Below, piece by piece: positions 84-52,084 of a stretch of 64,000 nt of DNA; position 1 is the first letter of the stretch, and every line of letters starts with the position of its first letter. The DNA is taken from contig CM074188.1 in the NCBI GenBank assembly GCA_037179385.1, positions 17,935,318 to 17,999,317 on the forward strand, written 5' to 3'. This DNA is from Holothuria scabra (taxonomy: Eukaryota > Echinodermata > Holothuroidea > Aspidochirotida > Holothuriidae). A model generated the notes under the pieces. It was not told the origin of the DNA and did no database searches. It was given only the letters and a program-made list of their open reading frames with translations. Made by a program: the position numbers and the translations under genes.

Positions 84-1864
84 ACAGCGGGGACTTTTCT
101 CAACTCACACCGAACGGTCAATGGCACCTTCGAGCCATGCCAGTGGAGGAACATCTAGTGAAGTATGGTTGTTGTCCGATTCCTTTCTCCGATATAACAT
201 TTACCTTGCAACTACGACGTAAGGAACTTTTCTACCTATTTAACTTGGTGCTGCCAGCAATACTCATGTCCTGGTTATCTGTCCTTAGTTTTTACATGCC
301 GATGGAATCAGGGGAAAAGGTTGGATTAAACATCACCATACTCCTTTCTCTGGTCTTTTTTCTGTTTCTCGGAGCGAGTCTGCTGCCACCAAATGCTGAC
401 TCAGTACCACTCCTCGGTAAGTCTTACCGTATTCATTTTCGCCGTTGGATCTACAAAACTTAGTGGTTTGCGAGCGAAACAGGCTTGCCATCACAAGGAC
501 CTACCACAGTATACACAAATATGATTACTAAGTGATATAGATGTTTGGCGTCCATTTGTGAGGTCCGTCTTCTCGTTTCTTTGTCTGTCTTTGTCATGAA
601 TAGTTGTATTTAATTCAAGTCCTGAACGTTATCTCCGTTCATAGGTTTTGACTTGTTTGAAACCATTGTGGTATTAAGCAACAGGCTTATAACTAAAATA
701 AAGATCGACTGATGGACCCCAGCAATTTTTCATTGCTACTTGACTTCCAGATTCGTTGAAAACATTGCAAAAAGGTTCTACTCCTTGATTTAGGAGGTCG
801 AAGTTTCAATCGCCAGTAAGGGAGATTTTTACAAAAAATACGGTTATTCAAACCTAAGTAACCAAAATCAAAACGTTTCCATAAAGGTGAGAAGTGTGAT
901 GTTGTAGTGCAAGGAACAACTAAGGACCTACTAAGTTGCCCAAGAACATGATGGTTTCCTTTCACTAAAATAGGCCTAGTCACGACCTAGCTGTCTGATA
1001 CTAAAACTTTAAAGCAAACCAATTAGTTTCCGAGAGGCAAACTGCACTGCAAGGTTATTCGTAAATATATGTAACTCAATACGTTATTTATGTGGTCCTC
1101 AAGCAATATTACAGACAATATTTATCTTTTTATTTTGTTGCTTTGCCTGAGACAGAAAATTTTGCAAACTTGGGGCAGGTATTTTCCAGTCCCGTGACTG
1201 GTACATACCGTCCCAGGCTGCTCTTTTAAGATAGGCTACCAATGCTCCAACATCTTAGTGTACGTCAATTGAATGAATATGTGATTTGTTTTTTATATCC
1301 CTTATAGCTCTTCTTTTGGAAACAATCATAATAATCATGTGCGTCGAGACGGGAATGGCTGTAATCGTCCTTCGCTTCTTCTTTCGTCAACCAAAAACAA
1401 AGCCTCCAAAATGGATGAGGTGGTTGATTCTTGACAAGCTGGCAGACATTTTGCCTTTGAAAGGACGCCACCACCCTTACAAAGAATACAATGACGATGA
1501 TGTAGATGAGGTTCTCTCCGCCAGCCCTTTTGAATTTGACGAAGGTGTAAGTTCAATTGACGACCGTGTCGTCGGAAAAAGCTTACTGGAGAAACTAGGT
1601 ATGACTTCCAATGAATCGTCAAAATGTGACGATTCTGACTACGATAGTGGCGGAGAGATGGAAGAGGCAATCGGTAGTCGGATCAAACACATCGAACGCT
1701 GCGTGCAGAGAATGAAAGAGCACGCGAAACAGGCGGACGAAGACGAAGACATCACACAGCAGTGGATGGATATTTGCATCATATTTGATCGACTTCTGTT
1801 GACTTTATTTATCATCGCTTTAGTATTAACCTCCGCAATAGTCTTGCTTTTGATGGTCTCTTAA
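84..1864 (+). CDS. Nicotinic acetylcholine receptor-like alpha-type subunit, last two exons
   Basis: This is the C-terminal part of a Cys-loop ligand-gated cation channel subunit of the plasma membrane. Exon A is 84-416 (acceptor TTTTCCAG, donor GTAAGT) and exon B is 1308-1864 (acceptor CCTTATAG, stop TAA). The split codon is completed in frame (phase 1), giving about 295 residues. Exon A holds the end of the ligand-binding domain (NGQW, then the loop C vicinal cysteines in YGCCPIPFSD), M1 and M2 (GEKVGLNITILLSL). Exon B holds M3, a cytoplasmic loop of about 120 residues with an acidic middle and an amphipathic pre-M4 helix, and M4 next to the C-terminus. The Cys-Cys pair marks an alpha-type subunit. 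GEK before M2 predicts cation selectivity. The second loop C aromatic is Phe instead of Tyr. VPL-to-M3 spacing equals that of known subunits, so no exon seems to be missing. Upstream exons lie outside the window. Confidence 0.93.
417..1307 (+). other. Intron of the acetylcholine receptor-like gene
   Basis: The intron runs from donor GTAAGT at 417 to acceptor TTATAG ending at 1307, between M2 and M3. The boundary between these segments is a common intron position in this family. I see no nested gene or repeat in it; the ORF on the minus strand at 693-983 resembles nothing I know. Confidence 0.85.
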
Positions 1865-2208
1865 TTTTTTCGCTCTTTTACTGAGGACGTGACGTTAAAG
1901 ACTGATGCAATTGAATGGACCCATTTGTGATTTCTCTACAACGACTTTTTATTACATCGTCCTTATTGATATTGTATTAACCTTTCCCGCCGTTTTAAAG
2001 TCTCTCTTGTTGTTATACATTCACTTATATATCTACTAAAAGCAGGTGTTATGACGTCACAGAAGTGCTGGGATACACTGACTTGAATTTTTTTATGTGA
2101 AATGGCTAATGACGTTTTTCCGCCTCAGCTATGATGTAATCACCCGGATGGTCCTCGATAATAAATTGTGTATGTTTCATATTATTTTAAGCCAATCTTT
2201 GTTTTCAT

Positions 2209-2218
2209 AATAAATAAA
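2209..2218 (+). other. Overlapping polyadenylation signals
   Basis: Two overlapping AATAAA hexamers (2209-2214 and 2213-2218) lie about 345 bases after the stop codon of the receptor gene. They are the best candidate for its 3' end. The stretch 1865-2208 would then be its 3' UTR, and I see no other feature in it. Confidence 0.5.
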
Positions 2219-2762
2219 ACTCTGGATTTGATCATGGTAGGCATATAAAGTGCTTTCACTGATGTCACAAGCGGCGTCCCTTTTATAGGACGAAAACCTA
2301 GTTCACGCTAGCTGGTGTAGCTAGCTGCTAGCTGAGAAGCAGCCGACGACCCCGTGTGACTGTTACACTAAACCGCTGATGTCGACTTTTGCCCGGCAGA
2401 GGACGTGGCTAACCAATTGTGACGTCACGTGAATGTCAGGTACATTTACAGAAAAAACAAACAGAAGGGGAAAAAGAAAACGGGAAAAGTGAAGTCAATT
2501 TTTTGACACTAATTGACAGGGTCTGTTTTGTTTTCCTTGTGTATTCTTTCGTATTCTCTTATGCTGGTGTATACAATATTTAACAAGGTTACTTTTGCAA
2601 GAAAAAACGCTCAGACGAATTAATATGGCAGAGAGAAGTAATGCACCAGTGAAACGTCTTAACTGGAATATTTCTCCGAAGAAAAAAATGTGTGGGCGAC
2701 AATTTACCAACATGTGAAAGTTAGTGGGTAACCTTTTTTAATGAAGAGAAAGAGCATATTGT
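2219..2762. other. Intergenic stretch, no gene seen
   Basis: AT-rich sequence with several GACGTCA-like and TGACGTCAC words (around 2431) but no ORF with family resemblance. A short segment near 2248-2340 resembles 16263-16370 (same order of AGTGCTTTCAC, ATGTCACAAG and GCTAGCT-type words), suggesting an old dispersed repeat. Confidence 0.4.
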
Positions 2763-3013
2763 TTAAAGGGCAAGAGCAGTTGCCCAATACTTCTATTTAA
2801 GCAGCAGCTAAATCGCATTATTAATTTCTTCTAATTCCTCTTCAAAGTATTTTTCAAAATGAATATGGCATATTTAACGTAAACCAAACAGTAACGTCCA
2901 GTAAATTTTACATTTTAGGAGAACAATATTGTCACATGACTCTCAAGAACCAATCATAAAACAGGACAATCTACTACTCTACTTCAATGTGGGGACTCAA
3001 TTTTGCCTTTTAA
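2763..3013. mobile_element. MITE, TTAAAGGGC family, copy A
   Basis: The segment starts TTAAAGGGCAAGAGCAGT and ends with the inverted form TTGCCTTTTAA. Inside it carries the words CACATGACTCTCAAG, CCAATCAT and CTACTACTCTACTTCAA, which recur in copies at 7395, 53708 (reversed) and about 59150. It has no coding content. Terminal inverted repeats plus dispersed copies of similar size suggest a non-autonomous DNA transposon; the superfamily is not determined. Confidence 0.65.
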
Positions 3014-3196
3014 GTTGAAATACGGTCATCATGCGCATCAGTTGATAAAGAACGACGGGGAATATTGATTTGAAACCAGAATGCAAAAATGCATTGAGGT
3101 TTCGATGATACACACATGCTCTTTTCAATAAAATGCTACAATTCTTGTAACAACTGGTGACCCAAAGTGACCTTTGACTCCACCTGTAGGTAGCTG

Positions 3197-3557
3197 CACT
3201 ATAAAATCAAAAGAGTGAACTTAGTCACTCTTTGATCGAGTGAAAAGTATAAATTCACTCCATAAGAGTGATAATTCACTCCAAGAGGAGTGAAGTTCCC
3301 TCCAAAAAGAGTGAAGTTTCACTCTTGATGGAGTGCCCACAGTGATCGCTCTTAAAAAAAGAGCGATCATTGCAGGCACTCGTGGAAGAGTGAATTTTCC
3401 CTCTTCCTCTAGTGAATTTCACTCTTTTTGGAGCGAACGTCACTCTTTTTGGAGGGAACTTCACTCCTCTTGGAGTGAATTATCACTCTAATGGAGTGCA
3501 TTTACACTTTTCACTCGATCAAAGAGCGACTAAGTTCACTCTTTTGATTTTAGAGTG
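3197..3557. repeat. Foldback palindrome, 361 bp
   Basis: The left arm begins CACTATAAAATCAAAAGAGT and the right arm ends with the inverted form CTTTTGATTTTAGAGTG. The arms meet around 3354-3358, where GATCGCTCTT faces AAGAGCGATC across a run of A. The arms are built from repeated GAGTGAA and TTCACTC words and differ in length by about 40 bases. It lies inside the left part of the minisatellite element and is absent from the second copy of that element, so it is probably a nested insertion. Short ORFs here are by-products of the repeat. Confidence 0.85.
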
Positions 3558-3639
3558 TGGTTTTTCCTTTAACCAAAACATTTCTATATTCAAAAAGCCA
3601 AATTACATACTGTGCCTTAAGATATACTGCAAACAAGGT

Positions 3640-5165
3640 TTTCAGAGTTTAATTCCAGGTGGTACCAGATGACCATTGACCTCCACAAAAACAACAGGTG
3701 CAGTACTTTCAACTCACCATAGCACATCCACATACTAATTAGGAAATCCATCCAAGTTTCCTACCTTGAGATACCCCAGTTTTCTTTTCACCTCCACAAA
3801 AAAACCTTATACAGACCATCTTCTCACCAAAATTCATCCACATACTAATTATGCTATCCATCCAAGTTTCATACCTTGAGCTATCCTAAACAAGTTTTTC
3901 TGAGTTTGATCCCCTATGACCCAAAATGACCTTTGACCTATACCAAAATCAAAAGGGTTCCTCCTTACATCATAACGCATCAACATATCAAGTTTGAAAT
4001 CAATCCAAGCTTCCTACCTTGAGATATTGTGTGAAAAAAGGTTTTCAGGATTTGTCCCCTCCTGACCCCACATGACCTTTGACCTCCACCAAAATATATA
4101 GGATTCTTCTTTACATCATAATGCATCAACATATCAAGTTTGAAATGAATTCAACTTTCATACCATGATGTGTCATGTAAACAAGGATTTCAGAGTTTGA
4201 CCCCATGTGACCCCAAATGACCTTTGACCTCCACCAAAATTAATTGGCTTCTTCCTTACATCATAACACATCAACATATCAAGATTGAAATGAATCCAAG
4301 TGTCCTACCATGATGTATCATGTAAACAAGGATTTCAGGGTTTGACCCCATGTGAACCCAAATGACCTTTGACCTCCACCAAAATTAATTGGGTTCTTCC
4401 TCACATCATAACGCATCAGCATATCAAGTTTGAAATGAATCCAAGTTTTCTACCTTCAGATAAAGTGTGAACAAGGATTCCAGGATTTGACCCCAGGTGA
4501 CCCCAAATGAGTCCTTTCTTACAGAATAACCTATCGACATATCAAGTTTGAAATTAATTCAAGTTTCCTACCATGAGATGTCGTGTAAATAAGGATTTGG
4601 GGGTTTGACCCCCAGGTGACCCCAAATGACCTTTGACCTCCACCAAAATCAATCGGATCCTTTCTTACATCATAACGCATCAACATATCAAGTTTGAAAT
4701 TAATCCAAGTTTCCTACCATGAGATATCGTGTAAACATGGACTTCAGGTTTTGACCCCACGTGACCCCAAATGACCTTTGACCTCCACCAAAATCGATAG
4801 GGTTCTTCCTTACATCATAACGCATCAACATATCAAGTTTGAAATTAATCCAAGTTTTTTACCATGAGATATCGTGCAAACAAGAATTTCGCGGTTTGAC
4901 CCCAGGTGACCCCAAATGACCTTTGACCTCCACCAAAATCAATAGGGTTCTTTTTTACATCATAACGCATCAGCATATCAAGTTTGAAATTAATTCAAGT
5001 TTCCTACCTTGAGATATTGTGTAAACAAGGATTTTGGGTTGTGACCCCCTGTGACCCCAGATGACCTTTGACCTCAACCAAAATAAATAGGGGTCTCCCT
5101 CTCAGCATGGGGTATCTGTGTACCAAGTTTGAGAACTGTCAGATCTTCCTTTCTCAAGATATCAT
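3640..5165. repeat. Minisatellite, unit about 145 bp
   Basis: The phrase ATGACCTTTGACCTCCACC recurs at 4072, 4217, 4372, 4626, 4771, 4916 and 5061. The last four are exactly 145 bases apart; one unit near 4507 has lost this phrase. Each unit continues with TACATCATAACGCATCAACA, a TTTGAAAT word, and GAGATATCGTGTAAACAAGG. Earlier units (3640-4060) are more diverged. No reading frame stays open through the array. Confidence 0.9.
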
Positions 5166-5620
5166 GTAAACAAGCAAAGTGTCACAAACACACACATATA
5201 CACACATACATACACACACACGCCATCATGAATGCATAGGTCTCTCTTTTCATCGAAACCAATTATAAGCGTATGTGTCCCCTCTGCTTAATGGGGAACC
5301 TATTTTTCCGAATGTCCGTAATTGATGACACATCCAAAAGTTCGAGCAAAACCGAACGGACATTCGGATGGGAGTAATTTAACAATGTATGATAATTACT
5401 CCATTGTCACCTAGCGCAGAGGATTGCCTGTACGAAACGTGTGATTCTTAACTGATTAAACGCGATCTACGCGGGACGCTACCACCAGTTGACAAAACTT
5501 CGAACAATCCCGACCACCCTCGAATGGCTCCAAATGGCATTTCCAAACCTGTAAGTAGAGCACATGCATACGTTACTTTGAATTTTCGCCGGATTATCCG
5601 CGAGGCCGAAAATGTACTGA

Positions 5621-38054: not shown

Positions 38055-38582
38055 ATGCCAAGAAATTGTGTTGTTGGGGGATGCACCAGAACAAGTGCGG
38101 ATCCCTCGCTGAGCTTTTTTGATTTTCCGAGCGAGAAAACCAACGATAAGTGCAGGAAACTCTGGATACGCTTTGTGAGGGGAACGAGAAAAGATTTTGT
38201 GGCACCTGGGGGCCGTTCCACAAAGAGTTACGCACAATCTTAAGTTTGATTTACCATACTTAAGCCAACAGTAAATCATACTTAAGATCGTGCGTAACTC
38301 TTTGTGGAACGGGCCCCTGGTGTTTCTCACGGAAAGAACGCAAAGATTTGTTCTGCACATTTCACCGAAGACGACTGGGATCCACAGTATGTTTTACAGA
38401 AAAAGATGAACTTCAAAGTGAAACCTAAATTGAAGACACTGGCTACTAGAGCGCCAATATCATTGAGCATGTGGTGCGTACACGATTTGGGAATTTCAGT
38501 AACGCAACACAATCTTCAACAGTTTTTCGAGGAAAAGACGTATCTTTGTTGCAGTGTCGTTGGAACCATGAAAAATAAATAA
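38055..38582 (+). pseudogene. THAP zinc-finger protein, interrupted by a MITE
   Basis: THAP domains are DNA-binding C2CH zinc fingers of animal transcription regulators and P-element-type transposases. The part at 38055-38209 starts MPRNCVVGGC (the first two zinc ligands) and runs through FDFPSEK and the conserved Trp in KLWIRFV. The part at 38321-38582 begins in the matching frame with KICSAHF (last Cys and His ligands) and ends at TAA 38580-38582. A 106-bp MITE separates them. Without the MITE and one copy of its CCTGG duplication the frame would be open for 138 codons. With it, translation ends 12 codons into the insert, losing the C..H ligands, so I call this allele broken. The C-terminal 30 residues (after RAPISLS) look unlike coding sequence and a splice site may precede them. 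Single-exon small THAP protein or first exon of a longer one cannot be decided. Confidence 0.8.
38210..38315. mobile_element. 106-bp MITE inside the THAP exon
   Basis: CCTGG is duplicated at 38205-38209 and 38316-38320. The inserted segment has near-perfect TIRs of about 40 bases (GGGCCGTTCCACAAAGAGTT and AACTCTTTGTGGAACGGGCC) and can fold as one hairpin with CTTAAG words in the stem. The high TIR identity suggests a fairly recent insertion. Confidence 0.9.
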
Positions 38583-42043: not shown

Positions 42044-42277
42044 GAAGTGTAACGAAATTGCATTGTGGCTATTTGAAGCCCCGTGTGGTAGATCCGACTG
42101 TTACCAATACTGGAAGCCACGGCACTCACATCCCTGACGAACAGCTGGTAAAGCCTCTTTCCCTGACCTCATTGGTTCCTTTCCTTCACGAAAATAGGGG
42201 TGGAGTTTTAGGTTTCCCGCTCACTGATTGGGTAAGTCTGCTAGCGCAGCGCACGTGGGACTCAGATGATGTTCGGA

Positions 42278-42284
42278 TATAAAA
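42278..42284 (+). promoter_or_regulatory. LTR TATA box
   Basis: TATAAAA in the context GTTCGGATATAAAACTACC. The same box is at 50316-50322 in the 3' LTR. It probably sets the start of the genomic RNA about 30 bases downstream. Confidence 0.6.
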
Positions 42285-42737
42285 CTACCACGAGGAAGGA
42301 AACAGGGGCTGGAAGACGGAAGATCTCACTGAAGACGTCCACGCGCACGCTGTTCAATAATAATTAAAGTATCAGAATTGAGGCCGAATAACAGCTAATA
42401 TTTGTGGGAACAAGGCGAGAGGCGACTGTTACGATTTGGTAAGAAAAATTGAAGGACGGGACTATTAGTAAGGAAGAGCAAAAGTTAAGTTAGCGGTACT
42501 CCGCTAACTGTGTTAGAAATTATACAGGCATCCGTAGAAATCATAGCTAAGAGTCGGGGTGGTTATAATTCACGCCTTACGAAGGCCGGGAAGGCGTGAG
42601 ATTATTAGGAACACTGGAATTACGAAACCGTGTTTTAGGACGGCATTATGATCTGGGAGGTTAACTAGGAGGGATGTACGTTATACTCCAGGCAGGGAGT
42701 TGTAACTAGGCTGGGTTATAGAACTGAAGAGCTGCCA

Positions 42738-42965
42738 TATGTGTTCTACCGTTGGGTAAACCCCGTATGTGTTATATCATTGAAGAGATGCTCTATGTGT
42801 TCTATCGTTGGCTCCACCTCTTATGCGTTATATCATTAAAGAGGTGCCCTATGTGTTCTATCGTTGGGTCAACCCCGTATGTGTTATACCAGTGGAGAGC
42901 CGGTGTATGTGTTTTTTTTTTCTTAGAGGCTTTCCTGTATGTGTTGTATCCTTGAAGACAGACAG
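42738..42965 (+). repeat. LTR minisatellite, 56-bp units (5' LTR)
   Basis: Units start TATGTGTTCTATCGTTGG and continue CCCCGTATGTGTTATATCAT, with GAAGAGATG; each 56-bp unit is two related 28-bp halves sharing TATGTGTT. About three to four units are present. Confidence 0.85.
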
Positions 42966-43518
42966 GTATGCTATATCGTAGGGCGTACCCGCCTGTGCTA
43001 TACAACCTGGAGCTAGCTTAGGTACGTGGTATGTCGACGCAGAGCTGGGTCGTTCTGGAAGGCAGAGGCGCACAGACGTACAAGGCACCGGGAGAGAAAT
43101 AACCCTCTTAGACGCTGGACCTTCTGCTAGAGAAAGGGGGAAGCCGTAGGGACCAAGGGACGAGTGCCCCCGTCAAAGACGTATACAGTGGGATATTGGA
43201 GCCAGGAGGGGAAAATTAGGACACTCCGACGTCTTGAGGGCCGGGACCACATCGCTTTTTGAGACAAAGGGGAGTCGGCTGGTACAAGGCCCACGTGCTG
43301 ATCTCTCTTAAAATTGTATCATTTTACCGCTTCTAAGTGTAAACACCATTATCCTATATTAGGATTTGCCTGTAATTCAATTATCAGAGTTCATGAATAA
43401 TTATTTGATTAACTTTAGAAATTTGTGTTCTGTCCATCTTTACGTGTGTGTGTTAACAATATCTATTCTATAGCCTATCCCCGGACCGCACTTTAATTTT
43501 AAGCGGCGCGTTACAAAT

Positions 43519-43573: not shown

Positions 43574-44944
43574 ATGGAGCCAGAGCCGAATTACCCAGAT
43601 GGAGACCACGTAGGATCTCAGGGGTCGTGGCAGGTAGTAGATGACTGGCGTGAAGACGACCTAATCCAACTGTTCCCCCGATGTACCCCCAGTCCACATG
43701 GCAGGCGTGAGGGTGATTTTCATGGCAGACGTGAGGATGATTCCGAGAGAATAGGACACTCGAGAGATGTTGGCATTGAGCTAGGTACTGGAAGAGTTCC
43801 CCACGACGAGGACCGCTTGAGGGAAGCCCAGGGTTCTGGACAGGGGGTGAGGACGTATTCTCCAAGGAATCCATTTAGGAGGTACGATGGTCAAGACGAA
43901 ACCTTGGGAGTGATGAACCACTTATCAGGCATGAGGTTTGGCAGGAACCCAGGAGATGGTAATCTTGGACGAGGGAATGACAACTTTACAGCAGGTGGGG
44001 GCATGGCCACAGGAGGGATAGCTGGAATCCGTCCTGGTACATATGATGGTAGCTCATCATGGGGAGATTACCAGGCCCAATTTGAAATTGTTGCCGAATT
44101 GCATAGGTGGAGTGCAAGGGAGATGGCCATGTGCCTAGCAGCTAGCCTGAGAGGTGAAGCACAGGCAGTTTTGGCTGATTTAGATGCAAATGCTCGTAGG
44201 GACTACACCTCGGTAGTGAGTGCTCTTGCACGTCGTTTCGACCCCGCCCACCAAACGGAAGTCTTTCGCATACAGTTAAAAAATAGAATAAGAAAGAAGG
44301 AAGAGTCACTCCCAGAGTTGGCGCATGAGATCAGACGGCTCACTAGGCAGGCGTACCCAGCCGCATCTTCTGAGGTGCAGGGTTTGTTGGCCAAAGATCA
44401 CTTCGTGGATGCAATGGACGATCCTGATTTAAGGTTTGGCATCTATCAGATTCGACCAAGGACCTTGGATGAAGCCTTAAAGGCAGCACTAGAAATCGAG
44501 GCATTCCAAACAGTAGAGAAGCAGAGAAACTTCACCGGTAGGAGGGTTGTGAGGGCTGTTGGTGGGCTGGACAACCGCCAGGGAAGCCCTACGATGAACC
44601 CCCATATGAGTAGCGAAAATAAGGTGAAGGCTACAGGTGGGGACATGAAGGACCGACAAGATATGTTAAGAGCTTTGAAGGAAGAAGTGCAGACTCTGAA
44701 AGAGAGAGTTAAACAAGACCCTCCATGGAACAGGAGATGGAGCAAAGGGGCTGCAAGGGCTGGTGGTAATCCCTCATATACGGAGGATGGTACCCCCATT
44801 TGTTTTCAATGTAGGAAGCCGGGACACTTGAAGCGAGACTGTAAGGAAGCCAGAGAGGTCCACACGGAGCTGCAGAGGGCAGCAGAAGTGGTATCACAGG
44901 AAAACTCTCAACTGTCGGGGTTGGGGTTCGCATCCCGGCAGTAG
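43574..44944 (+). CDS. Gag polyprotein of the Gypsy element
   Basis: 456 residues, uninterrupted, from ATG 38 bases after the primer site. Residues about 1-150 are hydrophilic and carry repeated GRREGD/GRREDD-like motifs. Residues about 155-310 are a retrotransposon capsid domain (YDGSSSWGDYQAQFEIVAEL, LAASLRGEAQAVLADL, LARRFDPAHQTEVF). Residues 410-423 form one nucleocapsid zinc knuckle CFQCRKPGHLKRDC (C-x2-C-x4-H-x4-C). It would assemble the virus-like particle in the cytoplasm and bind the element RNA. The end of the frame overlaps the start of the pol frame, which is one base back (-1). I see no canonical slippery heptamer at the overlap. Confidence 0.95.
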   Translation: MEPEPNYPDGDHVGSQGSWQVVDDWREDDLIQLFPRCTPSPHGRREGDFHGRREDDSERIGHSRDVGIELGTGRVPHDEDRLREAQGSGQGVRTYSPRNPFRRYDGQDETLGVMNHLSGMRFGRNPGDGNLGRGNDNFTAGGGMATGGIAGIRPGTYDGSSSWGDYQAQFEIVAELHRWSAREMAMCLAASLRGEAQAVLADLDANARRDYTSVVSALARRFDPAHQTEVFRIQLKNRIRKKEESLPELAHEIRRLTRQAYPAASSEVQGLLAKDHFVDAMDDPDLRFGIYQIRPRTLDEALKAALEIEAFQTVEKQRNFTGRRVVRAVGGLDNRQGSPTMNPHMSSENKVKATGGDMKDRQDMLRALKEEVQTLKERVKQDPPWNRRWSKGAARAGGNPSYTEDGTPICFQCRKPGHLKRDCKEAREVHTELQRAAEVVSQENSQLSGLGFASRQ

Positions 44945-45029
44945 ACGGAGAACATAATAGACCTATTCGTGTAGCAGTTTATGAGGGAATTCCAGGTTTA
45001 TCCCAGGATGGTATTATCTAAGCGGGTCA

Positions 45030-45335
45030 GTGCATTCAAAACCTTTATCATGTTTAGTAGACACAGGTGCCAATATTTCTATTATACAAGCTAGCAAGTT
45101 TTTCACAATTCCTCAGGAGGAACGACCACAGCTACAAGGGAGTAAGCTGAGTATGGTGCTGGCAGACGGAAAGAGTGTACCAATACTGGGGAAGGCCAGT
45201 ATGGGCATGAAAATTGGCGAGGAGGGACTGAATCATGAATTTTGGGTTGCCGAAATTGGGCCTGACTGTATACTGGGCCTGGACTTCCTGAAGCGGCATA
45301 ACTGCGCCAATGGGCAGTGTCATACTTGGCAGTGA
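45030..45335 (+). pseudogene. Gypsy aspartic protease region (frame-displaced)
   Basis: The aspartic protease signature LVDTGANISII is at about 45054-45086, followed by ADGKSVPILG and the ILGLDFL flap-end motif at about 45271-45291. The domain is complete in length but lies in a different frame from both the pol segment before it (stop at 45019-45021) and the one after it (from about 45310). Two indels of opposite effect, one at about 45000-45025 and one at about 45305-45325, would explain this. The listed start is only where this open segment begins. Confidence 0.85.
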
Positions 45336-46983
45336 CAAGGACACGTCAAAGTTCTCTGGGATGGAAAAACAGGATTTTTGTTGTAGGATGATTTTAACCG
45401 AAACATTGGTATTACCGGCTAACTCGGAGACTATGGTGAAGGCCAGAGTGAAGGACTTTAAAGAGGATCCCAAGGGGGAGATGGGAATGGTTGAGCCCAC
45501 GGTGGAGCTTCTGAGGAAGAAGGGCGTGTTGGCTGCACGGTGTCTGATCGAATTGGGAGCAGGGAATCTTCCGGTGAAACTGGCTAACTTCGGTGACCAG
45601 GATGTGACTGTGTACAAAGATACAACGTTAGGTGTCTGTGAAGGGGTGGAAAGGATCGATATCGCCGAGGTACCCAGAGATGGCCCAGATGTGGCACAAG
45701 GACACCAGGACGAGTTGTATCGGGATGGTACAGGGGGCCAGAGAGTTGCAGTGTGCGAGGGGTTGGAAGAGGTGAGATCTTCCGGATGTGGCGAGGGGAA
45801 TATCGCCAGGGACACCCAGATGGGACCGGTTGTGGTGCCCACACAGCTGCAGGCATTGTACCAAGATTGTACCAAGGACCTGGACGAAGAGCAACGGAAG
45901 GATGTTGCTAGATTGTTAGCTAGATGGGAAGCAGCCTTCTCAAAGGGATCGGAAGATTTGGGAAGAACAAATGTTGACAGACATCGTATTGACACTAGGG
46001 ACCATCCACCAATTAGACAACCAGCTAGGAGGTTACCATTCCACAAACAAGAAGAAGCTACCGAAGAGATTAATCGTATGCTTTCCTCTGGTGTCATAGA
46101 ACCTTCCTGCAGCCCGTGGTCTTCCCCCATTGTTCTCGAAAGAAAGAAAGATGGAAGTTTGAGATTCTGTGTTGATTTCAGGAAGGTCAATGATGTTACC
46201 ATTAAAGACTCATATCCGCTTCCTAGAATAGATGACACGTTGGACCTCTTAGGTGGAGCCACTTGGTTTTCGACTCTGGACTTAGCGAGTGGATATTGGC
46301 AGATTGAAGTAGACCCTGAAGATCGAAGTAAGACTGCCTTTTCTACCCACCAGGGGTTGTTTCAGTTCAAGGTTATGCCTGTCGGGCTTTGCAATGCCCC
46401 GGCCACCTTTGACAGACTGATGGACAAGGTTCTTGGTGGATTGAAATGGGAGAGCTGTCTTGTCTACTTAGATGATGTGATTGTTCATGGGAAAACGTTT
46501 GTGGATCATAACAGACGGCTAGAAGAGGTTATCAGACGGCTCAGTCAAGCAGGCTTAAAACTGTCTCCCCAGAAGTGTCAGCTCTTCAAACGTGAAGTGA
46601 CTTTCCTAGGGCACGTCGTTAGCTCTACTGGGATTCATACAGATCCCGAGAAAGTATCGGCAGTGACAACGTGGCCCCGACCTCAGAGTGTTCGAGACGT
46701 AAGAAAATTTGTGGGCCTTTGCAGCTACTATCGAAGGTTTATAAGGGGGTTTAGTACAATAGCAAAGCCACTCCACCGACTGACAGAGAAGGGTCGTGAG
46801 TTTAAGTGGACTAATGAATGTGAGGAGGCCTTCAATGAATTAAAGCAGCGACTGGTAACATCACCAATCTTGAGCTACCCGACAAGGGAAGACCCTTTTA
46901 TACTAGATACTGATGCCAGTGATCAAGGCTTGGGAGCAGTACTATCTCAAGTGCAAAATGGTGAGGAGCGTGTTGTTGGGTAA
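45310..46983 (+). pseudogene. Gypsy reverse transcriptase and start of RNase H
   Basis: After a linker of variable sequence, the polymerase begins near 46010 (HPPIRQPARRLP). Motifs in order: GVIEPSCSPWSSPIV, FCVDFRKVNDVT, STLDLASGYWQIE, FSTHQGLFQF, MPVGLCNAPATF, catalytic YLDD at 46465-46476, and FLGHVVSSTGI. The thumb and connection domains run to about 46860, then RNase H begins at LDTDASDQGLGAVLSQ. The frame ends at a TAA (46981-46983) where relatives have a Tyr codon before YSRT. Because the same frame continues directly after, this is a point nonsense change. Confidence 0.95.
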
Positions 46984-48612
46984 TACAGTCGGACGATGAC
47001 TAAACCTGAGAGGAAATACTGCGTTACCCGGAAGGAGCTCCTGGCAGTCGTGGAAGGTGTGAAGTGGTTCCATCACTTTCTTTACGGCAGGCATTTCCTG
47101 GTAAGGACGGACCACGGGGCACTCCGATGGCTAATGAACTTCCGACATCCTGAAGGTCAGACAGCTAGATGGCTAGAGCTGTTAGGTGCATATGACTTCT
47201 CCATTGAGCACCGAGCCGGGAGAGTTCACAATAATGCGGATGGGCTATCCAGAAGACCTTGTGGTAATTGTGCTCACGGTGGCAGGGAAGAGACTAAGGA
47301 GACCACTAGTAGGGAGAAAGAGGAACGCCTGGTTGAACGTACAGAACCAGCCCTCAGGATGGCACATATTAATACCAAAGAAGGAGAACATGGCAACTCG
47401 GTCGAGCCACCACCCCAGAAAGCTTCCGTTCCACCCTTCTGGACCCAAGAAAATTTGAAAGATCATCAGAGGAATGACCCGGACCTACTACCAATCATAC
47501 AAGGCAAGGAGAACCAATTGGAACCTCTATGGGAAGGTGTTTCTGGGGGAAGCAAGGTATTGCACCATTACTGGCGCCAGTGGGATAGTCTTGTACTGAG
47601 GGATGGGTTATTATTCAGGAAGTTTGAGTCCCCGGATGGGAAGGAAGCCCAGCTGCAATTGGTTGTGCCAAATTCACTTCAGAAACAAGTGTGGAACGTT
47701 TCTCATTCCCACCCTCTGTCAGGACACTTTATGATGAAGAAAACTCTAGGTAGGTTGAGACAGAAGTTCTATTGGAGTGGCTGCTCGAAAGATGTGGACC
47801 GTTGGTGTAAGAACTGTACAGACTGTGGGCAGCGGAGGGGCCCGAAGTCTAAACCAAGGGGGAAACTCAAACAATTTAGGGCTGGTGAGCCACTACAAAG
47901 GGTGGCCTTAGACATATTAGGCCCGCTACCTACGACGCCGAACGGGAAGAAGTATGTTCTGTTAATGGCAGACTACTTTTCCAAGTGGGTAGAAACTGCG
48001 TCCCTCCCCGATCAGGAAGCGATCACTGTGACAAATGCCCTAATTGAAAATGTTATCTGTAGATTCGGGATACCTGACGAAATCCACTCGGACCAAGGCA
48101 GGCAGTTTGAATCGGCAGTATTCCAGAAGACCTGTGAGCTATTGAGCGTGCATAAAACCAGGTCGACACCATACCGCCCCCAATCGGATGGTATGGTCGA
48201 GAGGTTTAATCGTACACTAGAGACTATGCTTTCCCTAGTTGTTTCCCCGAACCAGAAGGATTGGGATGTGTGGCTCCCTATCGTTACGATGGCATATAAT
48301 ACAGCTGTACATGAATCCACTGGATACTCACCCGCGGAGTTGATGTTTGGAAGACAACCACGAACGCCAATGGATATGCTGTTACCGGTAACAGATGAAG
48401 TACAGACTAAGAACTACCCAGAATACGTGGAGAACCTCCGAAAAAGACTAACAGAGGTACACCGACACGCGCGGGAGAACCTGAAAAAAGCTGATAACCG
48501 ACAGAAAACCCAGGCTGACCGGAAGGCAACCGAGGTCTTGTATTCCCCAGGTGATTTAGTGATGGTGCATTGCCCGGCTGTTAAGAAGGGACGTTCGTCC
48601 AAATTACATTGA
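46984..48612 (+). pseudogene. Gypsy RNase H and integrase
   Basis: Continues the pol frame after the TAA. RNase H: KYCVTRKELLAVV, FLVRTDHGALRWL and the end motif NADGLSRRPC. Integrase: an H2C2 zinc domain (HSHPLSGHF to WCKNCTDC, about 47704-47826), then the catalytic core with D in LDILGPLP, D in HSDQGRQFES, and E in GMVERFNRTLE. All three acidic residues are present. The frame ends in a TGA (48610-48612) where relatives have Trp in the HWPWQGP motif, a second nonsense change. Confidence 0.95.
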
Positions 48613-49035
48613 CCGTGGCAAGGCCCTGGTATAGTAATCAAGAGACTGAATAATATCCTATATCGAGTGAAGCCTGGTTACCACAAAGCCCCTAAAGTTA
48701 TTCACAACAACCGTCTCAAGAGATTCACAGGTTCAGCCCCTGAGTGGGTAGGAAGTGGGGTGGCTCCACAGGAAGAACCCAAAGAGGTGGGGTGGGAGTT
48801 CGATGGGAGTCTAGATAAATGCAGGACCCCTCCACCCGAAGTAGCCCCTGACTCAGCCTCACCTTTGGGGGTTGGGTTAGGTGAGGAAGTAGAAGACAGT
48901 GGGCGTCCCGATTTAGGGACTAGTGCTCTAGAAGCTAGGGAACCAGTTGAGGAAGGCAGGACAGTACCTGATGGGCAGCCAACAAGGCGTCAGTCCGGTA
49001 GAGTGCGGCGGGCTCCCAACAGACTTAGCCTATGA
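48613..49035 (+). pseudogene. Integrase C-terminal end (GPY/F-like module)
   Basis: Same frame as the integrase. PWQGPGIVIKRL and YRVKPGYHKAPKVIHNNRLK match the GPY/F module found in many Ty3/Gypsy integrases. A Pro/Glu-rich tail follows and ends RRAPNRLSL at TGA 49033-49035. I see no chromodomain. Confidence 0.85.
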
Positions 49036-49163
49036 TCGTTTTTGTTTGTTTGTTTTTTTTGTACACAATGGCTGAGGTTTCATTTTTTGTGTGTATATAG
49101 AAGCAAAGATTTTCTAACTTTTATTGCTGCGTTACTTTTCTCTTTTTATGCTATTACAGGAAG

Positions 49164-49950
49164 ATGGGCGATATCTGTACCCTGAAGTATGAATGCAACA
49201 GGTGCCACCAGCAGTTCTCAAAAAACGGTTCTTTGGAGAGACATGTTGAAAAGGAGCACTCTCCAAGCTTGTGGACTTGTGATATCTGTAAAACGTATCA
49301 GAGCGAAAGGAGATGGGCAGTGGACCGGCATCGAGATGGGTGCAAGAGAAGGAATTGGGGAGTCCGGACGGAGACAGTAGGAGAGTGGAACATCAGCCCA
49401 GAGGGAACAAAGCGAAAGGATGAAGGGCAGAAGGAGCCGAGGGGCAGGAGATTAGATGGACAAGGGAAGAGGGCCAAGAAGGACGATTCCAAGGGAGAGA
49501 AACGAAAAAGTGCAGAAAAAGGGCAAGCGTGCAAAGAGAGAGTGTAGCCGAAGTGCAAAAGGCAAAGGAAGTTTTTTTTTGAAGGACCCACCACTAGTGC
49601 AGAGGTGGCCCCACCTGGAGTATCTGACAGCACTAGGGTCCCCCCTCTCACAGACACCACAAACCCCTAGGGAGAAGACGCAGGAGGAGGCGAAGCGAGA
49701 AACGCAGGGGGAGACGAAGCAAGAAACGCAGGAGGAAACGAAGCAAGAAACGCAAGAGGAGACGAAGCAGGAGATAGAGAAGGAGACTTGAGGTGATAAC
49801 GGAAGAAAGGAAGCAGAGTCGGTCTTTAAAATTAACCTAAACCCTGGAATGGTCTTCCAAAAGATGATCCGCACTACCACCTACCCAGACGGCCGAGTAG
49901 AGGTAGAGGAGAAGCAGGAATTAAAAAGATGCGATTGTTGTTCTAAGTAA
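49164..49950 (+). pseudogene. Extra C2H2 zinc-finger ORF of the Gypsy element (env position)
   Basis: The ATG follows a strong acceptor (long pyrimidine tract, ATTACAG ending at 49159), so a spliced subgenomic RNA is likely. Residues 9-32 form a classical C2H2 finger (YECNRCHQQF to HVEKEH, C-x2-C-x12-H-x4-H). Residues 38-59 form a C-x2-C-x13-H-x3-C relative (CDICKTYQ to RHRDGC). A long Lys/Arg/Glu-rich region follows. The first frame closes at 49545-49547. The adjoining frame (from 49456) goes on with Gln-Glu-Thr repeats (ETKQETQEET) to a TGA at 49789-49791, then in the same frame with NPGMVFQKMI, YPDGRVEVEE and RCDCCSK to TAA 49948-49950. So one ORF has taken a frameshift and a nonsense change. 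No signal peptide or membrane segment is present, so it is not an env. Role unknown; nucleic-acid binding is inferred. Confidence 0.75.
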
Positions 49951-50085: not shown

Positions 50086-52084
50086 TGTAACGAAATTGCG
50101 TTGTGGCTATTTGAAGCCCCGTGTGGTAGATCCGACTGTTACCAATACTGGAAGCCACGGCACTCACATCCCTGACGAACAGCTGGTAAAGCCTCTTTCC
50201 CTGACCTCATTGGTTCCTTTCCTTCACGAAAATAGGGGTGGAGTTTTAGGTTTCCCGCTCACTGATTGGGTAAGTCTGCTAGCGCAGCGCACGTGGGACT
50301 CGGATGATGTTCGGATATAAAACTACCACGAGGAAGGAAACAGGGGCTGGAAGACGGAAGATCTCACTGAAGACGTCCACGCGCACGCTGTTCAATAATA
50401 ATTAAAGTATCAGAATTGAGGCCGAATAACAGCTAATATTTGTGGGAACAAGGCGAGAGGCGACTGTTACGATTTGGTAAGAAAAATTGAAGGGCGGGAC
50501 TATTAGTAAGGAAGAGCAAAAGTTAAGTTAGCGGTACTCCGCTAACTGTGTTAGAAATTATATAGGCATCAGTAGAAATCATAGCTAAGAGTCGGGGTGG
50601 TTATAATTCACGCCTTACGAAGGCCGGGAAGGCGTGAGATTATTAGGAACACTGGAATTACGAAACCGTGTTTTAGGACGGCATTATGATCTGGGAGGTT
50701 AACTAGGAGGGATGTACGTTATACTCCAGGCAGGGAGTTGTAACTAGGCTGGGTTATAGAACTGAAGAGCTGCCATATGTGTTCTACCGTTGGGTAAACC
50801 CCGTATGTGTTATATCATTGAAGAGATGCTCTATGTGTTCTATCGTTGGCTCCACCTCTTATGCGTTATATCATTAAAGAGGTGCCCTATGTGTTCTATC
50901 GTTGGGTCAACCCCGTATGTGTTATACCAGTGGAGAGCCGGTGTATGTGTTTTTTTTTCTTAGAGGCTTTCCTGTATGTGTTGTATCCTTGAAGAGATTC
51001 CCTATGTGTTCTATCGTTAGCTCAGCCCCGTATGTGTTGTATCATTGAAGAGATGCCCTATGTGTTCTATCGTTAGCCCAACCCCGTATGTGTTATATCG
51101 TTGAAGAGATGCCCTATGTGTTCTATCGTTAGCTCAGCCCCGTATGTGTTGTATCATTGAAGAGATGCCCTATGTGTTCTATCGTTAGCCAAACCCCGTA
51201 TGTGTTACATCACTGAAGAGATGCCCAATGTGTTCTATCGTTGGGTCAACCCCGTATGTGTTAAACCATTGAAGAGGTGCTCTATGTGTTCTATCGTTGG
51301 CTCCACCTCGTATGCGTTATATCATTAAAGAGGTGCCCTATGTGTTCTATCGTTGGGTCAACCCCGTATGTGTTATACCAGTGGAGAGCCGGTGTATGTG
51401 TTTTTTTTTTTTTTCTTAGAGGCTTTCCTGTATGTGTTGTATCCTTGAAGACAGACAGGTATGCTATATCGTAGGGCGTGCCCGCCTGTGCTATAAAACC
51501 TGGAGCTAGCTTAGGTACGTGGTATGTCGACGCAGAGCTGGGTCGCACCTGTCCATGTGATTTAAAGGCGAGGTCGAACTGTGGATTAGCGCAGTGAGTT
51601 GTTTATTTCGTATTGAGGGCGTTCTGGAAGGCAGAGGCGCACAGACGTACAAGGCACCGGGAGAGAAGCAACCCTCTTAGACGCTGGACCTTCTGCTAGA
51701 GAAAGGGGGAAGCCGTAGGGACCAAGGGACGAGTGCCCCCGTCAAAGACGTATACAGTGGGATATTGGAGCCAGGAGGGGAAAATTAGGACACTCCGACG
51801 TCTTGAGGGCCGGGACCACATCGCTTTTTGAGACAAAGGGGAGTCGGCTGGTACAAGGCCCACGTGCTGATCTCTCTTAAAATTGTATCATTTTACCGCT
51901 TCTAAGTGTAAACACCATTATCCTATATTAGGATTTGCCTGTAATTCAATTATCAGAGTTCATGAATAATTATTTGATTAACTTTAGAAATTTGTGTTCT
52001 GTCCATCTTTACGTGTGTGTGTTAACAATATCTATTCTATAGCCTATCCCCGGACCGCACTTCAATTTTAAGCGGCGCGTTACA
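50086..52084 (+). repeat. 3' LTR of the Gypsy element
   Basis: 1999 bp with TG...CA ends, TATAAAA at 50316-50322. It is about 530 bp longer than the 5' LTR. One cause is a block of about 74 bases (about 51552-51625, CACCTGTCCATGTGATTTAA and on) missing from the 5' LTR; the other is an expanded minisatellite. Confidence 0.95.
50776..51475 (+). repeat. LTR minisatellite, 56-bp units (3' LTR)
   Basis: About ten to eleven 56-bp units of the same type as in the 5' LTR. The motif with GTGTATGTG followed by a poly-T run and CTTAGAGGCTTTCC occurs twice (about 50940-50990 and 51391-51445), which shows that a multi-unit block was duplicated. Confidence 0.85.

What the first reader, a model, noticed from the sequence alone, without database searches (positions are those of the whole stretch)
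49164..49950. Gypsy retrotransposon carries an extra C2H2 zinc-finger ORF where env would be
Between the integrase end and the 3' LTR is a frame that starts right behind a strong splice acceptor. It encodes a classical C2H2 finger, a C2HC relative, a highly charged repeat region and a C-terminal RCDCCSK. It has no signal peptide or membrane helix, so it is not an envelope gene. A spliced accessory zinc-finger protein could act on packaging, chromatin targeting or host silencing. The ORF is damaged by one frameshift and one stop in this copy.
Basis: partly seen in the sequence, partly recalled or inferred. Interest (0 to 1): 0.75.

Follow-up and report, generated by a model that had tools for sequence, protein, structure and literature searches.

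The report
Zinc-finger accessory gene in Gypsy retrotransposons
A large group of virus-like jumping genes in an animal genome (probably an echinoderm) carries an extra gene for a two-zinc-finger protein where a virus would keep its envelope gene; selection has kept it working in many families, which points to an unstudied helper protein.

Summary
The ORF at 49164-49950 lies between integrase and the 3' LTR of a young Gypsy element. It is damaged in this copy, but the host genome (1.19 Gb; probably an echinoderm, since it holds bindin) has at least 68 places with a stop-free homologous frame of 240 aa or more. All nine rows aligned share two N-terminal fingers; most share a P-x-L-x-x-L motif and a C-terminal module modelled as a beta sheet. 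Selection is purifying: omega about 0.1-0.2 between families, 0.4 in family B; in the same 12 copies ORF3 equals integrase (both 0.37). An acceptor-like site just before the fingers ranks high in 10 of 12 sequences tested. The ORF3 and integrase trees agree broadly, with one conflict. One lineage deleted the ORF and still has at least 14 copies, so it is dispensable in cis. It has no membrane helix. Best reading: a spliced, trans-acting nucleic-acid-binding regulator, comparable in role to Cer1 CERV or retroviral Rev/Tat. Splicing, localisation and function are inferred. Ten library searches showed no published description; Repbase was not searchable.

The parts
42048..43515 (+). 5' LTR (TGTAACG...GCGTTACA), with GAAG just outside both LTRs as likely target-site duplication
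43574..44944 (+). gag, ends in a CCHC knuckle, open in this copy
44985..45335 (+). protease
45292..46983 (+). RT and start of RNase H; in another frame than the protease, ends at an in-frame stop
46984..48612 (+). RNase H end and integrase; ends at a second in-frame stop
48613..49035 (+). integrase C-terminal part (Integrase_p58_C) and charged tail
49130..49160 (+). predicted splice acceptor; exon would begin at 49160
   Evidence: rank 5 of 630 AGs here; rank 5 or better in 10 of 12 sequences tested
49164..49547 (+). ORF3, first piece: start codon, two zinc fingers (49194-49259, 49278-49343), basic/acidic linker
49552..49791 (+). ORF3, second piece in another frame: WPHLEYLTALGSPL motif (49606-49647), charged tandem repeats, premature stop 49789-49791
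49792..49950 (+). ORF3, third piece: C-terminal module (from about 49816), modelled as three strands in homologues, and RCDCCSK
50086..52084 (+). 3' LTR, longer than the 5' LTR by extra 56-bp repeat units

Best explanation
ORF3 is an accessory gene of a clade of Gypsy elements. SHOWN: homologous ORFs behind integrase in many families; shared finger architecture; purifying selection; an acceptor-like signal just before the fingers in most sequences tested; loss of the ORF in one amplified lineage. INFERRED: it was present in the clade's ancestor and mostly inherited with pol; it is translated from a spliced subgenomic RNA; the two C2H2/C2HC fingers bind nucleic acid in the nucleus; the helix motif and C-terminal module bind a partner or multimerise; the protein acts in trans on the element's own transcript or LTR, most likely to promote export or expression of unspliced genomic RNA (the CERV/Rev role), less likely as an LTR transcription factor (the Tat role). 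Trans action would let ORF3-minus relatives persist.
For: ORF3 homologues lie 3' of integrase at all 15 other places fetched and within 2.5 kb downstream of 85 of 142 integrase places, a lower bound (strand of the ORF3 match not checked there). At least 68 distinct places have a stop-free frame of 240 aa or more (less one place whose frame is mostly integrase). Omega by codon ML on a grid: 0.2 over three families (2dlnL 114), 0.1 over eight B/C/L024 sequences (2dlnL 170), 0.4 over 16 copies of family B (2dlnL 17.5). In the same 12 copies integrase and ORF3 both give dN/dS 0.37. Cys11, Cys14, His27, Cys39, Cys42 and His56 are invariant in 9 of 9 rows, and finger 2 keeps R/K at helix positions -1 and 6 in 10 of 10 sequences. 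Two AF2 models, built on the same nine sequences, give two bba fingers and a three-strand C-terminal sheet. The acceptor ranks 5th or better in 10 of 12 sequences. Integrase and ORF3 trees agree broadly. All 14 ORF3-minus places of one lineage lack the same stretch, 11 of the 13 checked with identical limits; 7 of 14 have a pol frame of 1300 aa or more. In recombinant L016 gag-pol is of family A, ORF3 and its 3' side of another lineage. Working analogue: CERV is spliced, nuclear and needed for gRNA export (PMC10309623).
Against: No RNA evidence, and no donor could be singled out. A simple monopartite NLS pattern is in only 3 of 9 families and not above shuffles overall. Family C (7 recent copies) gives omega about 1, with no power. 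57 of 142 integrase places show no ORF3 match; of five of these fetched, three have no two-finger ORF in the stretch seen. The ORF3-minus copies show it is not essential in cis and may be dispensable. L017 and L058 have weak acceptors. L022/L024, L017, L018 and L020 show no in-frame ATG between acceptor and fingers. The trees conflict on the order of L066 and L059 (ORF3 support 100, integrase 84). RNA binding is not shown; the fingers resemble DNA-binding CTCF fingers most. The C-terminal sheet has no significant structural match.
Confidence: 0.42

Rival explanations
1. ORF3 is a sequence-specific DNA-binding protein that steers integration or tethers the preintegration complex to chromatin, doing with zinc fingers what the chromodomain does in chromoviruses.
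For: Fingers resemble CTCF and other DNA-binding C2H2 fingers; finger 2 keeps R/K at contact positions -1 and 6 in 10 of 10 sequences (meaning of the positions recalled).
Against: It is a separate ORF behind an acceptor-like site, not fused to integrase. In L016 integrase and ORF3 come from different lineages. A lineage without ORF3 still amplified. Insertion-site preference was not tested.
Confidence: 0.2
2. ORF3 counteracts host silencing (piRNA or zinc-finger-guided heterochromatin), or acts as an LTR transcription activator.
For: Two host-like C2H2 fingers; contact residues of finger 1 differ between families; ORF3 kept its own 3' side in L016 (one case, also explained by linkage).
Against: No test of host interaction was possible. 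Purifying selection dominates; sites under positive selection were not sought.
Confidence: 0.2
3. ORF3 is an extra nucleocapsid-like packaging or chaperone protein.
For: Zinc fingers and long charged linkers.
Against: gag already has a CCHC knuckle; classical C2H2 pairs are not the usual nucleocapsid type (recalled).
Confidence: 0.08
4. Neutral passenger: a host gene fragment caught once, or an ORF open by chance.
For: The window copy is damaged; some families lack the ORF.
Against: At least 68 places with long stop-free frames, omega 0.1-0.4, and the same constraint as integrase in the same copies.
Confidence: 0.03

Closest known systems
CERV of the C. elegans LTR element Cer1 (PMC10309623; abstract, sections 6 and 9 and passages read)
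   Same: Accessory protein of an LTR retrotransposon made from a spliced RNA; [quoted passage not shown] the paper notes no obvious homology outside nematodes.
   Different: CERV is 517 aa from five exons, three of them in the gag frame, with a possible C4 finger, a predicted ring-forming domain and a G-protein-like domain. ORF3 here is 220-320 aa with two N-terminal C2H2/C2HC fingers, its own ATG just behind the acceptor in seven families, and a modelled C-terminal beta sheet. Homology with CERV was not tested.
Bdelloid rotifer LTR-element ORF3s (PMC5408684; abstract and passages read)
   Same: ORF3 downstream of pol with non-envelope products, shared between unrelated elements; that paper states that ORF3s in LTR retrotransposons are expressed from spliced messages.
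   Different: Products there are GDSL esterases, DEDDy exonucleases, coiled-coil or TM proteins; the words zinc and C2H2 do not occur in its main text.
Additional ORFs of plant LTR retrotransposons, e.g. Grande, Retand, RIRE2 (PMC7264820; abstract and passages read)
   Same: Extra ORF between pol and 3' LTR, some products nuclear, regulatory role proposed by comparison with retroviral accessory factors.
   Different: Those discussed are envelope-like or antisense; the word zinc does not occur in the text.
Chromodomain of chromoviruses (named in PMC12440569; abstract and passages read)
   Same: A chromatin-type module added at the 3' end of pol.
   Different: Fused to the C-terminus of pol; ORF3 is a separate ORF behind an acceptor-like site.
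CTCF zinc fingers
   Same: Best PDB sequence match of the fingers (7w1m with the A3 profile, E 8e-25; 8sss with L041, E 4e-11; 8ssq with the window piece, E 7e-7).
   Different: Several different CTCF finger pairs match, ORF3 has only two fingers, and other C2H2 proteins also match; origin from CTCF is not shown.

Membership tests
Ty3/Gypsy (Metaviridae) LTR retrotransposon | Order PR-RT-RH-INT in pol, with RT and integrase of this type | tested here: met
   Pfam RVT_1 2.5e-37, RT_RNaseH 9.1e-19, Integrase_H2C2 2.8e-16, rve 1.2e-14 in that order
Ty3/Gypsy (Metaviridae) LTR retrotransposon | LTRs with TG...CA ends and 4-6 bp target duplication | tested here: met
   TGTAACG...GTTACA, GAAG on both sides
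Envelope-bearing Gypsy (errantivirus type) | Third ORF with membrane helix | tested here: not met
   Highest 19-residue hydropathy 0.47 over the window's three pieces and nine homologues; signal peptides were not predicted by a program
C2H2 zinc-finger proteins | C2H2 finger above Pfam gathering score | tested here: inconclusive
   Window finger 19.4 against 25.2 bits; of 8 homologues, L041 28.4 passes PF00096 and L035, L041 pass zf-H2C2_5; bba fold at pLDDT about 90 in L012
Chromovirus | Chromodomain at the end of pol | tested here: not met
   No chromodomain among the Pfam hits of the pol or ORF3 pieces
CERV/Rev-like export regulator (working analogy) | Product of a spliced RNA | tested here: inconclusive
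   Acceptor-like site, rank 5 or better in 10 of 12; donor not found; no RNA data
CERV/Rev-like export regulator (working analogy) | Nuclear, binds and exports genomic RNA | not testable with these tools
   Simple NLS pattern in 3 of 9 families, not above shuffles overall

The most novel reading that the evidence does not exclude
A clade of animal Gypsy elements took a two-finger, CTCF-like host domain in its ancestor and turned it into a spliced Rev/Tat-like trans-regulator. The 3' cassette can be exchanged between lineages, and one lineage has become an ORF3-minus parasite of ORF3-plus relatives. This would be a complex-retrovirus style of gene regulation evolved independently in retrotransposons.
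Probability: 0.33. Interest if true: 0.8.

Novelty: new variant of a known kind. Interest (0 to 1): 0.62.

Why it matters
Accessory proteins of animal LTR retrotransposons are little studied; CERV of Cer1 is the one worked example met in these searches. Here one type is old, is held by selection over many families, and has a natural control: sister lineages with and without the ORF in one genome. That makes the question of what a non-envelope third gene does for a retrotransposon directly testable from RNA-seq and insertion data. It could also show a separate origin of Rev/Tat-like regulation or of zinc-finger targeting.

Tried and rejected
Homologues outside this genome: one piece of the window ORF found none in 5.8 billion proteins. 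A nine-row alignment found only a multi-finger protein. Viral contigs and prokaryote genome contigs (with a pol query) gave none. These collections are poor in animals, so absence means little.

Host source of the fingers: among 75 matches to L066 ORF3 the one I judged host-like, L081, is part of a tandem-finger gene (read) with no special likeness; not a shown source. CTCF is the best PDB match, but through several different finger pairs.

Donor site: higher-scoring sites lie in the LTR (42232, 42439, 42966, 43022) and gag (43995, 44637), with none standing out. NLS search: no signal above shuffles overall. Fold search with the L012 model: nothing at E 0.001 or better. COX1 search for the host: no usable contig.

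Own errors: the gag query was translated in the wrong frame (32 stops), so its gag identities are not used; the DNA comparison replaces them. One search failed on a parsing error and was redone. One search printed 69; one place (C1:42133935) has a frame that is mostly integrase, so I count 68. In one search, 142 of the 143 matches were typed (the dropped one is a second piece of the L010 integrase), and the ORF3 list was typed without checking strand. Copies without an open two-finger frame (L027, L028, L050) and broken ones (L025, L029) were left out of the codon tests; the 30 loci used were the best 30 of 80 matches. Some places were fetched twice (L021 and L026, L022 and L024, among others).

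Full report
What is in the window. The finding sits in a young Gypsy element: 5' LTR 42048-43515, 3' LTR 50086-52084, GAAG on both sides. The LTRs are 99.3% and 99.1% identical over the two longest aligned stretches. Gag is open. Pol carries a frame break after the protease and two in-frame stops. ORF3 carries one frame break and one stop. ORF3 begins with ATG at 49164, four bases behind an AG with a long pyrimidine tract, and ends at 49950.

Is it real? A search of the host genome with the first ORF3 piece gave 19 matches. Eight near copies (90-100% identity, the window included) form one family, A. All 15 other places fetched have a Gypsy integrase end directly upstream of ORF3. Queries with ORF3s of more distant families gave 80, 79 and 75 matches, with many of the same places turning up in more than one search. 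Counting stop-free frames of 240 aa or more gives 69 distinct places, of which I drop one whose frame is mostly integrase. Of 142 integrase places related to the window's (one search scored 142 of 1932 candidates), 85 have an ORF3 match within 2.5 kb downstream. By integrase identity: 9 of 9 at 90% or more, 1 of 2 at 62-90%, 26 of 26 at 58-62%, 5 of 21 at 55-58%, 6 of 20 at 51-55%, 28 of 41 at 49-51%, 10 of 23 below. This is a lower bound: of five no-hit places that were fetched, two (L056, L058) do have a two-finger ORF that the searches missed.

What the protein is. An alignment of nine rows shows two zinc fingers at the N-terminus, then charged low-complexity sequence, a C-terminal module, and between them a short motif P-x-L-x-x-L in 7 of 9 rows (L017 has a variant, L056 lacks it; so does L066, which was not in the alignment). 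The metal ligands Cys11, Cys14, His27, Cys39, Cys42 and His56 are invariant in 9 of 9. The last ligand of finger 2 is Cys in some families and His in others; finger 1's last His is Gln in L017. The C-terminal module has a PDG or similar turn in most rows; L016 ends early in another sequence. Two AlphaFold2 models, started from proteins 19% identical but built on the same nine sequences, both give two bba fingers and a three-strand C-terminal sheet, with low-confidence linkers (mean pLDDT 61.6 in each, so only these parts are trustworthy). At the helix positions that usually touch DNA, finger 1 differs between families, while finger 2 keeps R/K at -1 and 6 in 10 of 10 sequences (meaning of the positions recalled). 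There is no membrane helix.

Is it selected? Between families synonymous sites are saturated or nearly so (pS 0.74-0.85) while amino-acid sites are not. Codon ML on a grid gives omega 0.2 for three families (2dlnL 114 against omega 1), 0.1 for eight B/C/L024 sequences (2dlnL 170) and 0.4 for 16 copies of family B (2dlnL 17.5). Family C, with seven recent copies, gives no signal. In the same 12 family-B copies integrase and ORF3 have the same ratio, 0.37, although ORF3 has a higher synonymous divergence (0.043 against 0.024), which I cannot explain. Pairs are not independent, and copies without an open frame were left out.

How it is likely expressed. The best AG within 140 bases before the fingers is among the top five AGs of its sequence in 10 of 12 sequences tested; L017 (13th) and L058 (11th) are weak. 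The 12 include close relatives (window and L012; L016, L018 and L020), the stretches differ in length, and the score uses a recalled consensus table. In seven families (A, L016, L059, B, C, L066, L056) an ATG in frame follows the acceptor within about 30 bases. L022/L024 and L017 have none before the fingers, nor do the decayed L018 and L020; there a start would have to come from the upstream exon. No donor stands out. Splicing is therefore inferred.

History. The integrase tree (21 rows) places ORF3-bearing families throughout. Three families with no two-finger ORF in the stretch fetched (L054, L055, L057) are each sister, with support 100, to an ORF3-bearing one (L066, L056, L058). For L054 the loss is direct: it matches L066 at 96.6% and then skips about 640 bases holding the acceptor end and nearly all of ORF3. 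The 13 further ORF3-minus places of that lineage lack the same stretch, 11 with identical limits and two (L072, L078) with slightly different ones; 7 of the 14 have a pol frame of 1300 aa or more. For L055 and L057 the loss is inferred from the tree alone. The ORF3 tree agrees broadly with the integrase tree: A with L016 and L017 on one side, and B, C, L022 and L056 on the other. Two of its seven nodes are below 70, and it conflicts on whether L066 (ORF3, support 100) or L059 (integrase, support 84) is nearer family A, which may be exchange or error. L016 is a recombinant: bases 149-5421 match family A at 94.4%, and from 5427 the acceptor and ORF3 match the L018/L020 lineage at 88%. The 3' cassette can thus change partners.

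Best explanation. The facts fit a diffusible accessory protein made from a spliced RNA. Its fingers suggest a nuclear nucleic-acid-binding role, its constraint shows that it has helped the elements that carry it, and its loss in an amplified lineage shows that it is not needed in cis. The closest worked example is CERV of Cer1, a spliced, nuclear protein needed for export of unspliced genomic RNA (PMC10309623). An element with a spliced mRNA faces the same export problem. I give this export or expression role about 0.4, chromatin or integration targeting 0.2, and anti-silencing or LTR activation 0.2.

Novelty. PMC12440569 names chromodomains and envelope genes as known additions (passage). Repbase and most subscription journals were not searchable, so prior cataloguing is possible. 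The kind, an extra ORF between pol and the 3' LTR, is known; this type appears new to me.

Host. The genome is 1.19 Gb in 31 contigs. A bindin match (E 8e-30) points to an echinoderm (that bindin is an echinoderm protein is recalled; the 14 control genomes were negative, but the eight named are prokaryotes). The class was not determined.

Noticed in passing
42656-42980 and 50694-51469: The LTRs hold tandem 56-bp units; the 3' LTR has more of them (1999 against 1468 bases), so the two LTRs of one insertion differ mainly by repeat number.
   Followed up: partly
L062/L054 and L067-L079: A lineage with ORF3 deleted has at least 14 copies, 7 with a pol frame of 1300 aa or more; one search shows about six near-full-length ORF3s of the ORF3-plus sister lineage. 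A natural plus/minus comparison.
   Followed up: yes
L016 reversed, about 107-150: After the LTR the leader continues into a sequence that looks like the 3' arm of a tRNA and then into gag, as if the primer tRNA had been copied past its normal stop (seen by eye).
   Followed up: no
L019 reversed, about 5450-5480: Integrase sequence is joined almost directly to the ORF3 exon, either a deletion or a copy of an unusual spliced RNA.
   Followed up: no
L017: Integrase pieces are 33-50% identical to the window's but ORF3 is 54%, so ORF3 is the better conserved part here; possible cassette exchange or a degenerate pol.
   Followed up: partly
window 38203-38322: An inverted repeat, two 52-bp arms at 92% with 16 bases between, outside the element.
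   Followed up: no
family B loci, ORF3 against integrase: Synonymous divergence is higher in ORF3 (0.043) than in integrase (0.024) of the same 12 copies.
   Followed up: no
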